Of a stretch of DNA of 41,771 bases, positions 13,129-18,335 are shown in pieces. The notes beneath the pieces were generated by a model. That model saw nothing but the letters and a program-made list of their open reading frames with translations. It was not told where the DNA came from and did no database searches. This stretch comes from an uncultured bacterium (GTDB lineage: Bacteria > Cyanobacteriota > Vampirovibrionia > Gastranaerophilales > Gastranaerophilaceae): the NCBI GenBank assembly GCA_900319365.1, contig ONOE01000013.1, forward strand, positions 1-41,771, in the 5' to 3' direction. Numbering within the stretch: the stretch's first letter is position 1; each line of letters begins with the position of its first letter. Both the position numbers and the translations under genes were made by a program.

Positions 13129-13204
13129 GGCTTCGTAGCTCAGTAGGATAGAGCGGCGGTTTCCTAAACCGTGTCTGCCGTGCGTTCGAATCGCACCGGG
13201 GCCA
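13129..13204 (+). tRNA. tRNA-Arg, anticodon CCU
   Basis: A 76-nt cloverleaf. The acceptor GGCTTCG pairs with CGGGGCC (two G-U pairs). The D stem is GCTC/GAGC. The anticodon stem is GCGGT/ACCGT around TTCCTAA, giving anticodon CCT, which reads AGG. The T stem is GTGCG/CGCAC with loop TTCGAAT. The discriminator is A and no CCA is encoded. It sits at the left end of the accessory island, a usual type of integration site. Confidence 0.95.
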
Positions 13205-13244
13205 CTAAAAAAGACAAGGACAAAAGTCCTTGTCTTTTTTAGTG
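13203..13244 (+). terminator. Rho-independent terminator of tRNA-Arg
   Basis: A perfect 19-bp stem (13203-13221 with 13226-13244, loop AAAA) containing GACAAGGAC/GTCCTTGTC followed by six Ts. The stem takes in the last two bases of the tRNA, so it may compete with tRNA 3'-end folding. Confidence 0.9.
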
Positions 13245-13714
13245 CCTTGGTAACAATGAGAACACAACTCTGCGTTCTGCGGAATTTCGGTAGGGCGATG
13301 TCGAGGACGAAGTCCGAGCAAGCCCGTATGTAGAACAGAGGAATTGAGTGTAAAAATGCGATAGCATTTTGATGCGAAATGTAAGGAAGTTCACCCCCGA
13401 AAATCCAAGATAATGGATTTTTGGGAATAGTTAAGCGAGGAAAATAAGGTAAAAAGTTTGCGAAAATAATAAGCTGTTCGCAGGACTAATGAGCAAACTT
13501 TCGTTGTATTAAAAGAATAATTAAAGCGAATGAAATTCGCCCTCGTGAACAAGTTAACTGAGTAATAAAAATTGCGTAAGCAATTTTATAAAACGGAGTA
13601 ACTTAATTTACGAACCTGCAAAATCCAAGAGCTCAATGATGGAATCTGTCTCTTTATGTTAAACGGTCATGGCATCACTTATCATGTATTATGGCGGACT
13701 ATAGTTTGAACTAC
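13245..13714 (+). other. gene-free, hairpin-rich stretch; candidate structured RNA
   Basis: 470 bp without a credible gene, rich in short hairpins. A nested structure spans 13269-13341: CTCTG/CAGAG outside, TTCT/AGAA next, GGGC/GCCC inside, and GGAC-GAA-GTCC at the tip. Others are AAAATGC-GATA-GCATTTT (about 13354-13370), an 11-bp stem CCCGAAAATCC/GGATTTTTGGG (about 13395-13424), GTTTGC/GCAAAC or GCGAA/TTCGC (about 13456-13498), GCGAAT-GAA-ATTCGC (about 13526-13540) and AAAATTGC-GTAA-GCAATTTT (about 13568-13587). Loops GTAA and GATA fit the GNRA/GNNA type on the plus strand. It may be a structured RNA, a mosaic of palindromic repeats, or an element remnant. No known family is recognised. Confidence 0.4.
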
Positions 13715-14836
13715 CTAATTATACGTAGGAAAAACTAAATTTCTTGCGTTATGAGTCTGCATATTGTCACTATATACCTTAAATTTACATTTAGAAGTTA
13801 TGCCAATATCTATTTGTGTATATTTTGGCTTATTGACGTAGTCCCCATAAATGTTCAACCCCTCTGTAAAACGTTTAATTACTGCTTTTAAACTCTTTAT
13901 ACTATTATCAACCCCTATCCAGTTGCGTCCTGTTTCAAAAGCTGCAGCTAAGGTTGTCCCACTACCTGCAAAACAATCCATAACTATATCTCCTTTATTA
14001 GAAGATGCTTCAACTATCATTTTGAGCATTGAAAGATTCTTTTCTGTAAGATATCCGGTTGTTTTGTCTGTTTGGTTTATTGAATCTCTGCAATTTAGCC
14101 ATATATCCTGTATAGGAACACCTTTATCAGGATTACAAAATACTTTTCGACGAGGATTTCCATTAGGGCTCCAGTAAATTTCTCCTGCTTTATCCAAAGC
14201 ATCTAATTTTTCAGGCGTATATTGCCAGTGTTTTCCTTTGGGTGGCATCATATCATGCCACATTTTACCTGTTTCTCCATTTCGTATGCCTGGGGCATGA
14301 ATTGGTACTTTTTTATATCGTTTTCCTGTCTTTCTATCTATGCATGGATATTGCTTAATCATTTGGTCATATTCCCAAGGGGTAAATGGTCTATGCCAAG
14401 TATATTTTGATGTTTTTGAGTAGAACATTATGTAATCAGAAATATTTCCATAAATATTTTTTGTATAATTTTTTGTACTGCATTTCTTCCTTGTTATGAA
14501 TGCATTACAATTTTCCTCTCCAAAAACTTCATCCATGATGATTTTCATATTGAAAGCCATTTTATTATCAAGATGAAGATAAATGGATCCTTTGGGGGAT
14601 AATAATTCTCTCATAATAATTATTCTCTCTCGCAAGAACTCTATAAATTCGCCGCCGACAAGCGAATCTTGGTACGCTTGTTCTTGTTCTTTATTTACAA
14701 AATAGGAGTTTGTAGAAAAAGGAGGATCTATATAAATTAAATTTATTTTTTCTTTATAACCCGAATGCAGTAAAAAGAGTAATGCGTTTAGATTATCACC
14801 ATAAAAAAATTTATTTTTGCTTGATACTCCATTCAC
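13715..14836 (-). CDS. site-specific DNA methyltransferase, beta class, N-terminus out of frame
   Basis: 373 residues from a GTG at 14836. SAM-binding motif X-like FFYGDNLNALLFLL and the catalytic IYIDPPFSTNSYF (about 34-46) come first. A target-recognition region follows, and FAGSGTTLAAAFETGRNWIGVD (motif I, about 290-311) comes last: the order of beta-class amino-methyltransferases, probably N6-adenine. The GTG has no Shine-Dalgarno sequence. The frame stays open upstream for about 40 more codons with methyltransferase-like sequence (SGKLSEAEIRNKSYTNFEF) but no ATG. A well-placed ATG at 14976, overlapping the restriction gene stop, is in another frame; the two join across an A7 tract at 14943-14949. 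The gene is thus frameshifted, phase-variable, or started at the GTG. The downstream protein keeps all catalytic motifs. Confidence 0.85.
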   Translation of the reverse strand: MNGVSSKNKFFYGDNLNALLFLLHSGYKEKINLIYIDPPFSTNSYFVNKEQEQAYQDSLVGGEFIEFLRERIIIMRELLSPKGSIYLHLDNKMAFNMKIIMDEVFGEENCNAFITRKKCSTKNYTKNIYGNISDYIMFYSKTSKYTWHRPFTPWEYDQMIKQYPCIDRKTGKRYKKVPIHAPGIRNGETGKMWHDMMPPKGKHWQYTPEKLDALDKAGEIYWSPNGNPRRKVFCNPDKGVPIQDIWLNCRDSINQTDKTTGYLTEKNLSMLKMIVEASSNKGDIVMDCFAGSGTTLAAAFETGRNWIGVDNSIKSLKAVIKRFTEGLNIYGDYVNKPKYTQIDIGITSKCKFKVYSDNMQTHNARNLVFPTYN

Positions 14837-14942
14837 ATCAGAAATAAACTCGAAATTTGTATAGCTTTTATTTCGAATTTCTGCTTCACTTAACTTCCCG
14901 CTATAGTTAAGGCTGATTGATATTTTGGGCTTTCTAACTTTA

Positions 14943-14949
14943 TTTTTTT
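14943..14949 (-). other. A7 tract at the methyltransferase frame break
   Basis: Seven As on the minus strand, nine codons after the ATG at 14976 (MNSVYWYSD). With eight As the frame would join directly to the methyltransferase; with seven it ends after 28 codons. Homopolymer slippage could switch expression. Confidence 0.5.
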
Positions 14950-14968
14950 GTCGCTATACCAATAGACA

Positions 14969-15844
14969 CTATTCATCACCTACTAACCATTTTCTCGTTA
15001 AACGTTCGTCTATCATTCGTAATGTTAATACTTTGACTTGATTGGGATATCTATCTTCAATATTTGAATAGTCTCGCCACATAGTGCCTAATAAAAGTCC
15101 CGGTCCGTCATTTATATAAATTACTTTTGTTTTGAGATTATGCTCATTGACATACGACAATACTTCGTCTGCACAATTTCTATAACCTCCAGTTCTATCA
15201 TCCTCTTGTGCTCCCACTCTATCGCCATCATAGCGAGCTAAACCGACGGCGTAAATAATTTGTTTATCCGAAGATGAAATAACAAAATCCAGAGGTCTAT
15301 TTTCATTAGGATAATCTTTCCATATTTCTTTTGCTTGTACATCTGAGCCTGCCCGTTTGGGTCCCCAAATGTATAAATCGGGAAACTTACCTTGTATAAT
15401 ATTAAAAATTTTTTCAGTTAGATCATACCCCTTTTTACCACGGTCTTTGTACTCCCAGAGGATAGCACAAATTGTTTCATCCAATATTGGGCGCAGATCA
15501 AAATTTTTCTGTACATCTTGAATTGGTCTAAATCCACTACCAAAATCATTACAAATTTTTTTGTTAGGGTTTTCTTCTTTAACATTTTCGACAGGAGTTG
15601 CATGAGATACATATTTCCTGAAAATACGGCAAAGTTGTATACGCATCCATTGGTTTGAAAGTTACGATATATTTTGAAATAAAGCTGTAGAACTTTCTGA
15701 ACTATGTATAATTGTAGAGAACATTTCCAAAGCAGGAGAGTATAGCCTACAGGCATCTTTTAAAATATCAGGATAGTATTCCCATGTTGAAAGAGTTATA
15801 TAATTACATCTTTCCTCTGGTGTATAGTCTTTAAATTTTTGCAT
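14969..15844 (-). pseudogene. type II restriction endonuclease gene with an in-frame TAA
   Basis: A 292-codon frame broken only by TAA at 15662-15664. The first part (60 residues from ATG 15844, GGAG 7 nt upstream) ends STALFQNIS. After the TAA the same frame reads LSNQWMRIQLCRIFRKYV and continues 225 residues from ATG 15646 to the stop at 14969. Two segments look like a nuclease core: GKKGYDLTEKIFNII, and RPLDFVISSSDKQIIYAVGLARYDGDR followed by GAQEDDRTGG. They resemble a type II restriction enzyme family that I recognise only by pattern. The partner methyltransferase start overlaps the stop by 8 nt. The internal stop fits one CAA-to-TAA change. Either the enzyme is dead or the 225-residue C-terminal part is made alone; no Shine-Dalgarno precedes 15646. 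Confidence 0.75.
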
Positions 15845-15891
15845 ATAGCTACTCCTTTAAATTGAAAATTCATATTTGTAATGATAACATA

Positions 15892-15903
15892 GAAACATGT
15901 TTC
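15892..15903. promoter_or_regulatory. 12-bp palindrome upstream of the restriction gene
   Basis: GAAACATGTTTC is perfectly symmetrical and lies about 48 bp before the restriction gene ATG, within its probable promoter. It could be a regulator site. Otherwise 15845-16141 holds only AT-rich sequence and a possible -10 (TATATT, 16034-16039) for the next gene. Confidence 0.35.
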
Positions 15904-16141
15904 CAGATGTTTTTGTAACATTTTTTTTAAATTTCTTACTAAAACTAATTGTTTAAGATAAATATTTATTCTATATTTGTAAAATATTAGTAAAAGCCCA
16001 AAAACTAAAGCTCGTTAATAATCATTTTATGCTATATTATAGTCGGGTCAACTTAAAATGATATGAACATAATTGCTTCCTAAATAATTCAAAAATTTCA
16101 AATCTATATGTTTGCCATATAATTTAGAAAAAGGAGCAAAT

Positions 16142-16627
16142 ATGTTCAGATCGTTGAGAAGAATAAAGCAGCAATTACCGTTTGAAGATTGCGTTGCGCT
16201 TTTAAAATCCGAAGTGAGAGGAACGCTTTCCGTGCTTGGAGATGATGATTATCCATACGGGCTTCCGATAAATTTTTATTATGATGAAAATGACGGGAAT
16301 TTAGGGAAAATTTATTTTCATGGCAGCAAGGCGGGTCATAAAATTGATGCGATAAAAAAGCACGACAAAGTTTCATTTTGTGTTCGTGATAACGGGGTTC
16401 AAAAAGAGGGAAAACTCGGATTGGATTATAAGAGTGTCATAGTTTTCGGCAGGATAAAAATTGTCAATGATATGGATAAGACACTTGATATATGCGCAAA
16501 ACTTGCATCACAATTTGATTTTGGACAGGATTATATTGATAGTGAAATTAAAAAGTTCGCAAAATTTGTAGCGGTGCTTGAATTGACACCCGAGCACATT
16601 TCGGGCAAAACAGTAAATGAAAGTTAA
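16142..16627 (+). CDS. pyridoxamine 5'-phosphate oxidase-like flavin-binding protein
   Basis: A 161-residue split-barrel FMN-binding protein of the PNPOx-like group (NimA/PF12900 type). MFRSLRRIKQQLPFEDCVALLKSEVRGTLSVLGDDDYPYGLPINFYYDENDGKIYFHGSKAGHKIDAIKKHDKVSFCV, with a short insert omitted here, is the typical start-to-core sequence. Members reduce or oxidise small compounds; some confer nitroimidazole resistance. The substrate is unknown here. The start at 16142 is preferred because AGGAG lies 5 nt upstream; a longer frame would need a TTG at 16112. It is transcribed toward ilvD, about 50 bp away, but ilvD has its own promoter. Confidence 0.85.
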   Translation: MFRSLRRIKQQLPFEDCVALLKSEVRGTLSVLGDDDYPYGLPINFYYDENDGNLGKIYFHGSKAGHKIDAIKKHDKVSFCVRDNGVQKEGKLGLDYKSVIVFGRIKIVNDMDKTLDICAKLASQFDFGQDYIDSEIKKFAKFVAVLELTPEHISGKTVNES

Positions 16628-16656
16628 CATATATTTAAAAATATTTATGCTATGAT
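16624..16656 (+). promoter_or_regulatory. ilvD promoter, TTAACA-N21-TATGAT
   Basis: TTAACA (16624-16629), 21-bp spacer, TATGAT (16651-16656), 23 nt before the ilvD ATG. TTAACA overlaps the stop codon of the preceding gene. The spacing is identical to surE and the PurD-like gene. Confidence 0.5.
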
Positions 16657-16679
16657 ATTTTTCGTGGAATAGGGATATT

Positions 16680-18335
16680 ATGAGAAGTGATAATATTAAA
16701 AAAGGAATAGCACATACTCCGCACAGAGGGCTTTTGATGGCTGCGGGAGTAAGCAGAAAAAATATGGATGCTCCGTTTATCGGGATTGCAAGTTCGTTTA
16801 CGGATTTAATCCCAGGACATGCAGGCATGAGAGATTTGGAACGCCGGATTGAAAAAGGGATTCATACGGGCGGCGGTCAGGCTTTTATATTCGGCGTACC
16901 TGCAATATGTGATGGTATCGCAATGGGGCATAACGGTATGAGATATTCGCTCCCTTCAAGGGATTTAATTGCGGATTGCGTTGAAACCGTTGCGCAGGGG
17001 CATCAGTTAGACGGACTGGTTTTACTTACAAATTGCGATAAAATTACTCCGGGAATGTTAATTGCCGCAATGAGGTTAAATATCCCGTCAATTATCGTTA
17101 CAGCAGGTCCTATGCTTGAGGGTGAAAGCAGGTGCAAAAAATTAACTATGATAAAAGGTTCGTTTGAGGCGGTCGGGAAATATCGAAACGGTGAAATCGA
17201 TAAAGACAGATTGCTTGAACTTGAAGAAGAATCTTGTCCGACATTCGGTTCCTGCCAAGGAATGTATACGGCAAATACAATGGCTTGTTTGACGGAAGTT
17301 ATGGGAATGAGTTTGCCGTTGTGTGCCACGTCATCTGCCGTTTCATCAAAAAAACGCCGTATAGCTTTTGATTCGGGCGTTCAAATTGTAAATCTCGTAA
17401 AAAATGATATTAAACCATCAGATATTATTGATAAAGAAACTATCGAAAATGCAATTATTGCCGATTTAGCGCTCGGAGGAAGTACAAATTCGGTTATGCA
17501 TTTGCTTGCGCTTGCGAATAGCGGCGGAATTGATTTGAAACTGGAAGATTTCGATCGTTGGGGAAATACTGTTCATCAAATTTTGAAACTTGACCCTGCC
17601 GCAAATCCAACGATGACGGAATTTCATTATGCTGGCGGAGTTCCTGCATTGATGAAAAATTTGATAGAGGCAAATATCGGTATAAAAAATAAAAATACCG
17701 TAAGCGGTTTGTCGACTTTTGAAATATCAAAAAATGCTTTTGTTGATAAGAATTTGATAAAAACTTACGATAACCCCGTTAATACAAAACCGGGGCTTGG
17801 AATTTTGCACGGAAATATTGCGCCCGACGGATGTGTAACAAAGATTTCGGGGATTGACGAAAGCTGTTACGAATTTGAGGGAAAAGCGGTATGTTTTGAT
17901 TGCGAAGAAGATGCAATGTCAGCGCTTGAAAATGATGAAATTAAAGACGGTGATGTAATAATTATACGTTATGAGGGCCCTAAAGGCGGTCCCGGGATGA
18001 GAGAAATGCTGGCACCGACTTCTCTTTTGGTCGGCAAGGATTTAGGTAAAACGGTTGCCCTTATAACAGACGGTAGATTTTCGGGCGGCACGAGGGGAAT
18101 TTGCATAGGTCATGTTTGTCCTGAAGCCGCAAACGGCGGGAATATTGCGCTTATTGAAAACGGCGACAAAATTAAAATTGATATAAACAACCGCAGAATC
18201 GAACTTTTGGTGTCTGAAGATGAACTCAATGAGCGAAGAAAACATTTAAAACCGTTTGAGAACAAAATCAAATCGGGCTACCTTGCAAAATATGCAAGAA
18301 CCGTTCAGGATGCATCACATGGAGCAATTGTATAG
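16680..18335 (+). CDS. ilvD: dihydroxy-acid dehydratase
   Basis: A 551-residue IlvD, the iron-sulfur enzyme that dehydrates 2,3-dihydroxy-isovalerate and 2,3-dihydroxy-3-methylvalerate in valine, leucine and isoleucine synthesis. Signature regions are present: [24 protein letters not shown] (cluster Cys, about 117-140), [28 protein letters not shown] (about 186-213), [12 protein letters not shown], and near the C-terminus [12 protein letters not shown] and [20 protein letters not shown]. Length is normal. AGGG precedes the ATG by 5 nt. uppS starts directly after its stop codon, and rdgB overlaps uppS, so the three form one operon. Confidence 0.97.

What the first reader, a model, noticed from the sequence alone, without database searches (positions are those of the whole stretch)
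14890..14976. Methyltransferase start lies in another frame across an A7 tract: frameshift or phase variation
An ATG (14976) overlaps the restriction gene stop, as expected for a coupled operon, but its frame ends after 28 codons. The methyltransferase frame is open upstream to about 14957 and reads like family sequence, without any ATG. The frames join if the A7 tract had eight As. Phase-variable methyltransferases controlled by homopolymers are known in other bacteria. A broken or switching methyltransferase beside a broken nuclease is a coherent picture of a decaying or switchable system.
Basis: partly seen in the sequence, partly recalled or inferred. Interest (0 to 1): 0.65.

Follow-up and report, generated by a model that had tools for sequence, protein, structure and literature searches.

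The report
Freshly broken BstEII-type restriction-modification system
A DNA-cutting and DNA-marking gene pair related to the textbook enzyme BstEII was probably active for a long time in this uncultured relative of cyanobacteria, but in the sequenced genome both genes are broken near their starts, so the pair is most likely recently dead rather than a designed switch.

Summary
The frame break is real. Upstream lies a BstEII-homologous nuclease gene (ATG 15844 to TAG 14969) with a TAA at codon 61. The methyltransferase frame is open from 14953 and carries family motifs upstream of GTG 14836, so that GTG is not the native start. The native start is most likely GTG 14969, overlapping the nuclease stop. 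It has a 7-nt Shine-Dalgarno match and encodes V-S-I-G-I-A-T-K, matching the family's M-A-T-G-I N-terminus. ATG 14976 has neither feature. The GTG frame stops at TAA 14942, directly after the A7 tract. A7 is ordinary here (38 such A/T runs in the window) and below usual phase-variation lengths. The genome holds only 11 GGTNACC sites, the lowest of 46 genomes in the genus (others 31-206, median 83), so this specificity was probably enforced for a long time in this lineage. Best explanation: an R-M island beside tRNA-Arg whose two genes were disabled recently. A sequencing error, or a low-rate switch at the tract, cannot be excluded without reads.

The parts
13129..13205 (+). tRNA-Arg (CCT); left edge of the site that carries the R-M island
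   Evidence: ARAGORN, Rfam tRNA; in three congeneric genomes this tRNA is followed by ilvD within about 370 bp
13715..14953 (-). Open frame of the methyltransferase (M, N6_N4_Mtase; 412 residues from the upstream stop to TAA), without an ATG/GTG/TTG before 14836
   Evidence: PF01555 E 8e-42; PADLOC type II MTase PDLC03354 E 2.6e-134; about 50% identity to M genes beside BstEII-like nucleases
14834..14836 (-). GTG 14836-14834, the first in-frame conventional start; unlikely to be native
   Evidence: Downstream of the conserved Y-x-x-K...I motif present in every homologue that covers it; only a 4-nt Shine-Dalgarno match
14943..14949 (-). A7 tract on the coding strand, where the GTG-14969 frame and the M frame part company
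   Evidence: GTG-14969 frame stops at TAA 14942-14940, M frame opens after TAG 14956-14954
14940..14969 (-). Proposed native start of M: GTG 14969, frame VSIGIATKK then TAA
   Evidence: MATGI-like (7th of 2821 start-codon sites in the window); Shine-Dalgarno AGGTGAT at 14982-14976
14890..14976 (-).
   Evidence: MNSVYWYS has no family similarity (rank 41067 of 54771) and no usable Shine-Dalgarno
14969..15844 (-). Restriction endonuclease gene (R), BstEII homologue, start ATG with AAGGAG Shine-Dalgarno, interrupted by one in-frame TAA
   Evidence: PDB 9ibq (BstEII), E 5.9e-63 for the part after the stop and 3.5e-6 for the 60 residues before it; up to 61% identity to cyanobacterial homologues
15662..15664 (-). 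Premature TAA at codon 61 of R (about BstEII residue 61)
   Evidence: homologues read through here, e.g. ISRTSAQWMRIQL
13250..16660 (.). Island between tRNA-Arg and ilvD, absent at this place from relatives: R-M pair plus a pyridoxamine-oxidase-like gene (16112-16627)

Best explanation
This is a type II restriction-modification operon of BstEII type (expected site GGTNACC), carried as an island beside tRNA-Arg in a Gastranaerophilales-like genome and recently inactivated by two single-base-scale lesions. The nuclease gene has a stop at codon 61. The methyltransferase gene is translationally coupled to the nuclease, starting at GTG 14969 inside its stop codon, and is shifted out of frame at an A tract seven to nine codons into the gene. 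Translation from the native start ends after nine codons; starts downstream would lack the conserved N-terminal motif and have poor ribosome sites. Shown: both lesions, homology, start evidence and site depletion. Inferred: loss of function, recency, and that R failed before or together with M, because losing M with an active R would expose the remaining 11 sites to cutting.
For: R is a BstEII homologue over its whole length with one TAA. M lies in the same family as the M genes beside BstEII-like nucleases in Geobacillus pBSO1, Acinetobacter plasmids and cyanobacteria. GTG 14969: 7-nt Shine-Dalgarno (6 nt or more at only 26 of 4034 start codons in the window), MATGI-like peptide, and the K-N codons after it match homologues. 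In the R-then-M homologues L033 and L034 the M start follows the R stop by 12-15 bases. GGTNACC: 11 in 1.95 Mb against 31-206 in 45 congeners (median 83), control word 68; 1 observed against 15.1 expected in a 260-kb sample of the genome, 6 against 7.5 in a congener. Long-lived orthodox type II systems cause such avoidance and it can persist after loss (PMC4687349). Nuclease decay is seen elsewhere in the family: R with one TAA beside an intact M in G309, and four stops in G495.
Against: No reads and no second strain, so either lesion could be an assembly error or a minority allele. Apart from the one lesion in each gene, R and M are undamaged, so decay must be very recent. The ordering of the two losses is inference. 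Site depletion could come from another enzyme with an overlapping specificity, although no second BstEII-like gene was found in the genome. The specificity itself rests on homology.
Confidence: 0.62

Rival explanations
1. Phase variation: the A tract just after the M start changes length by slipped-strand mispairing, so M switches on and off in the population and this assembly caught an off state.
For: Tract lies in the first 30 bases of the gene, an effective place for a switch. A runs recur at this point in homologues: A5 in several, A9 in frame in L044, genome G414; A runs of 5 or more are 17 per kb in the first 66 bases against 8 per kb in the rest. Site depletion would make M loss less costly.
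Against: A7 is below usual thresholds (10 or more A/T in PMC6321876) and common in this genome. No homologue among 16 is out of frame. AAA:AAG codon choice in the first 66 bases is about the same as in the rest. The R lesion is not reversible by slippage. No length variant was found (viral collection only).
Confidence: 0.12
2. Sequencing or strain-mixture artefact: one or both lesions are absent from the real dominant genome and the system is active.
For: Two lesions in one 0.9-kb stretch of otherwise intact genes, with strong genome-wide site depletion as if the system were active. The genome is a 37-contig draft.
Against: About 25 other A/T runs of 7 or more sit inside open ORFs of the same contig, so such tracts are not generally miscalled. 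The R lesion is an in-frame stop, not a homopolymer indel. Completeness 99.9%, contamination 1.1%.
Confidence: 0.14
3. Recoding: M is made at a low level by transcriptional slippage on the A tract or by a ribosomal frameshift before TAA 14942.
For: A runs are slippery for polymerase and ribosome (PMC3711429); the tract is followed directly by a stop, a context that favours a +1 shift (own knowledge).
Against: From GTG 14969 a +1 (or -2) shift is needed, whereas the classical A_AAA_AAG and A_AAA_AAA sites give -1 (own knowledge). Programmed transcriptional slippage is described for A runs longer than 7 (PMC3711429). Homologues are not recoded.
Confidence: 0.06
4. M is simply translated from GTG 14836 or from a non-standard start such as ATA 14923, and the upstream frames are irrelevant.
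For: Other MTases of the wider family begin right at the conserved motif (L005 to L007), which ATA 14923 would match.
Against: GTG 14836 loses the conserved Y-x-x-K motif; neither site has a convincing Shine-Dalgarno; no homologue begins at 14836.
Confidence: 0.06

Closest known systems
BstEII R-M system (Geobacillus stearothermophilus plasmid pBSO1; nuclease PDB 9ibq, 9ic8)
   Same: R 49% and M 51.5% identical; M begins MATGIPS
   Different: There R and M are convergent and both open; here they are tandem R then M and both interrupted
BstEII-like R-M loci of cyanobacteria (L033 to L046)
   Same: R up to 61%, M up to 54% identical; L033 and L034 share the tandem R-then-M order
   Different: M open in all; R open in nearly all
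Phase-variable methyltransferases (phasevarions) of Helicobacter, Haemophilus, Moraxella
   Same: Frameshift in a simple repeat near the start of a beta-type MTase
   Different: Those use long repeats, often poly-G/C or tetranucleotides (PMC3711429), with shown switching; here A7, no variant seen, partner nuclease carries a stop

Membership tests
BstEII-type type II R-M system | Nuclease homologous to BstEII over its length | tested here: met
   PDB 9ibq on both sides of the TAA
BstEII-type type II R-M system | Adjacent N6_N4 methyltransferase of the same subfamily as those beside other BstEII-like nucleases | tested here: met
BstEII-type type II R-M system | Specificity GGTNACC | tested here: inconclusive
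   Indirect: strongest GGTNACC depletion in the genus
BstEII-type type II R-M system | Intact, expressed genes | tested here: not met
   TAA at R codon 61; M start frame closed after nine codons. It is a member by descent, not a shown working system
Phase-variable methyltransferase | Repeat long enough to be hypermutable | tested here: not met
   A7, ordinary for this genome; published A/T cut-off 10
Phase-variable methyltransferase | Length variants between strains or within a population | not testable with these tools
   One genome per species held; no reads; viral-collection scan empty
Programmed frameshift or transcriptional slippage | Conserved slippery site with a frame break in homologues | tested here: not met
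   16 homologues have the start and the M domain in one frame

The most novel reading that the evidence does not exclude
The A-rich lysine/asparagine codons just after the M start (A5 to A9 across the family) form a slow contingency site: tract slippage turns M off. Because ATG 14976 and GTG 14969 lie in different frames, lengths on either side of A7 would both give a methyltransferase, with different N-termini, and A7 would be the off state.
Probability: 0.07. Interest if true: 0.55.

Novelty: new member of a known kind. Interest (0 to 1): 0.3.

Why it matters
It is a snapshot of a type II R-M system at or just after its death in a non-photosynthetic relative of cyanobacteria. The genome still carries the footprint of long restriction (11 GGTNACC sites left), while both genes bear single lesions. 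It also shows that an apparent start codon overlapping an upstream stop can mislead, and that homologue N-termini plus ribosome-site evidence settle the frame.

Tried and rejected
Viral-collection scans for R, M and the tract: no tract variant, only one distant M fragment. Structure model of M from five sequences: mean pLDDT 49, too poor to judge the N-terminus, so no fold search was run. Rfam on the locus: only the tRNA reached its family's gathering score. Search for a paper on Gastranaerophilales restriction-modification: none held; no BstEII structure paper found. Considered and rejected: ATG 14976 as native start; GTG 14836 as native start; the tract as unusually long.

Full report
What is there. 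On the minus strand two adjacent genes fill the space between tRNA-Arg (13129-13205) and a pyridoxamine-oxidase-like gene (16112-16627). The first gene begins at ATG 15844 with an AAGGAG Shine-Dalgarno. It runs 60 codons to a TAA (15664-15662), and the same frame then stays open to TAG 14971-14969. Both parts match the restriction enzyme BstEII (PDB 9ibq): E 3.5e-6 for the 60 residues before the stop and 5.9e-63 for the rest. The second gene is an N6_N4 methyltransferase (PF01555). Its frame is open from 14953 to the stop that ends at 13715.

Check of the observation. The A7 tract, the overlapping ATG 14976, its 28-codon frame, and the absence of ATG, GTG or TTG in the methyltransferase frame before 14836 are all as described. 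The stretch 14920-14837 does read as family sequence. Homologues from cyanobacteria, Geobacillus and Acinetobacter all carry a Y-x-x-K...I motif there, so GTG 14836 is not the native start.

Where the gene really starts. Sixteen homologues begin [M/V/L]-A-T-G-I, about 20-35 residues ahead of that motif. A GTG at 14969 shares its first base with the nuclease stop (TAGTG) and encodes VSIGIATKK, then TAA 14942. Among 2821 start-codon positions in the window only six score higher against the family N-terminus. The GTG has AGGTGAT, a 7-nt match to the ribosome-binding complement, at a usable distance. Only 26 of 4034 start codons in the window have a match of 6 nt or more, and ATG 14976 has none. 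The peptide and ribosome-site evidence are independent, and both point to GTG 14969. In that reading the sequence has one A more than the frame needs, not one fewer. The difference lies within 14956-14940, most simply in the A tract. In many homologues the corresponding codons read AAA AAT (K-N), as the methyltransferase frame does here.

Is the tract special? No. The window has 38 A/T runs of 7 or more, against about 66 expected from a first-order Markov model, and 27 lie inside open ORFs. A survey of phase variation used 10 or more A/T as its cut-off (PMC6321876), and programmed transcriptional slippage is described for A runs longer than 7 (PMC3711429). The family does tend to be A-rich just after the start: 17 A runs of 5 or more per kb in the first 66 bases against 8 per kb in the rest, and A9 in one cyanobacterium, L044. 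The AAA:AAG ratio there is close to that of the rest of the gene, so this follows from lysine content rather than from selection for a tract.

History. In three congeners the tRNA-Arg is followed by ilvD within about 370 bp, so the pair came in as an island. The nuclease was found in no other of the 194 related genomes first searched; a distant, complete relative sits in another genus of the family (L047). The genome has 11 GGTNACC sites in 1.95 Mb. The other 45 genomes of the genus have 31-206 (median 83), and the reversed control word occurs 68 times in this genome. In a 260-kb sample of this genome the site occurs once against 15.1 expected (Poisson 4e-6 before correction for 192 words), while in a congener it occurs 6 times against 7.5. 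Avoidance of this kind marks long residence of an orthodox type II system and can persist after its loss (PMC4687349). The system was therefore probably active for a long time, and both lesions are recent, or are not fixed.

Mechanism and order (inference). With the nuclease stopped at codon 61, loss of methylation is harmless. The reverse order would leave the remaining sites exposed. Family members show the same first step: an R gene with one TAA beside an intact M in G309, and a heavily damaged R in G495.

Limits. There are no reads, no second strain and no methylome. The specificity rests on homology and on the site footprint. Phase variation, an assembly error in one or both places, and low-level recoding remain possible and are ranked above as rivals.

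Noticed in passing
own genome sample (window and L082-L092): Other palindromes are also strongly depleted: GAATTC (19 of 129 expected), CATATG (4 of 51), CTTAAG (3 of 28), AGTACT (1 of 11), suggesting further present or past restriction systems.
   Followed up: no
13129-16680: The tRNA-Arg to ilvD interval looks like an insertion site: about 370 bp in G004, G002 and G016, longer in G040, 3.4 kb here.
   Followed up: partly
13419-13563: Stretch with similar copies at several places in many genomes of the genus (e.g. G016, five places), no Rfam match; possibly a repeat element.
   Followed up: no
13203-13244: Perfect 19-bp inverted repeat with a 4-nt loop directly after the tRNA, probably its terminator; partly similar copies in own contig C14.
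   Followed up: no
L044 (G414), M codons 6-9: A9 run in frame just after the methyltransferase start in a cyanobacterial homologue; a better candidate for slippage than the window.
   Followed up: no
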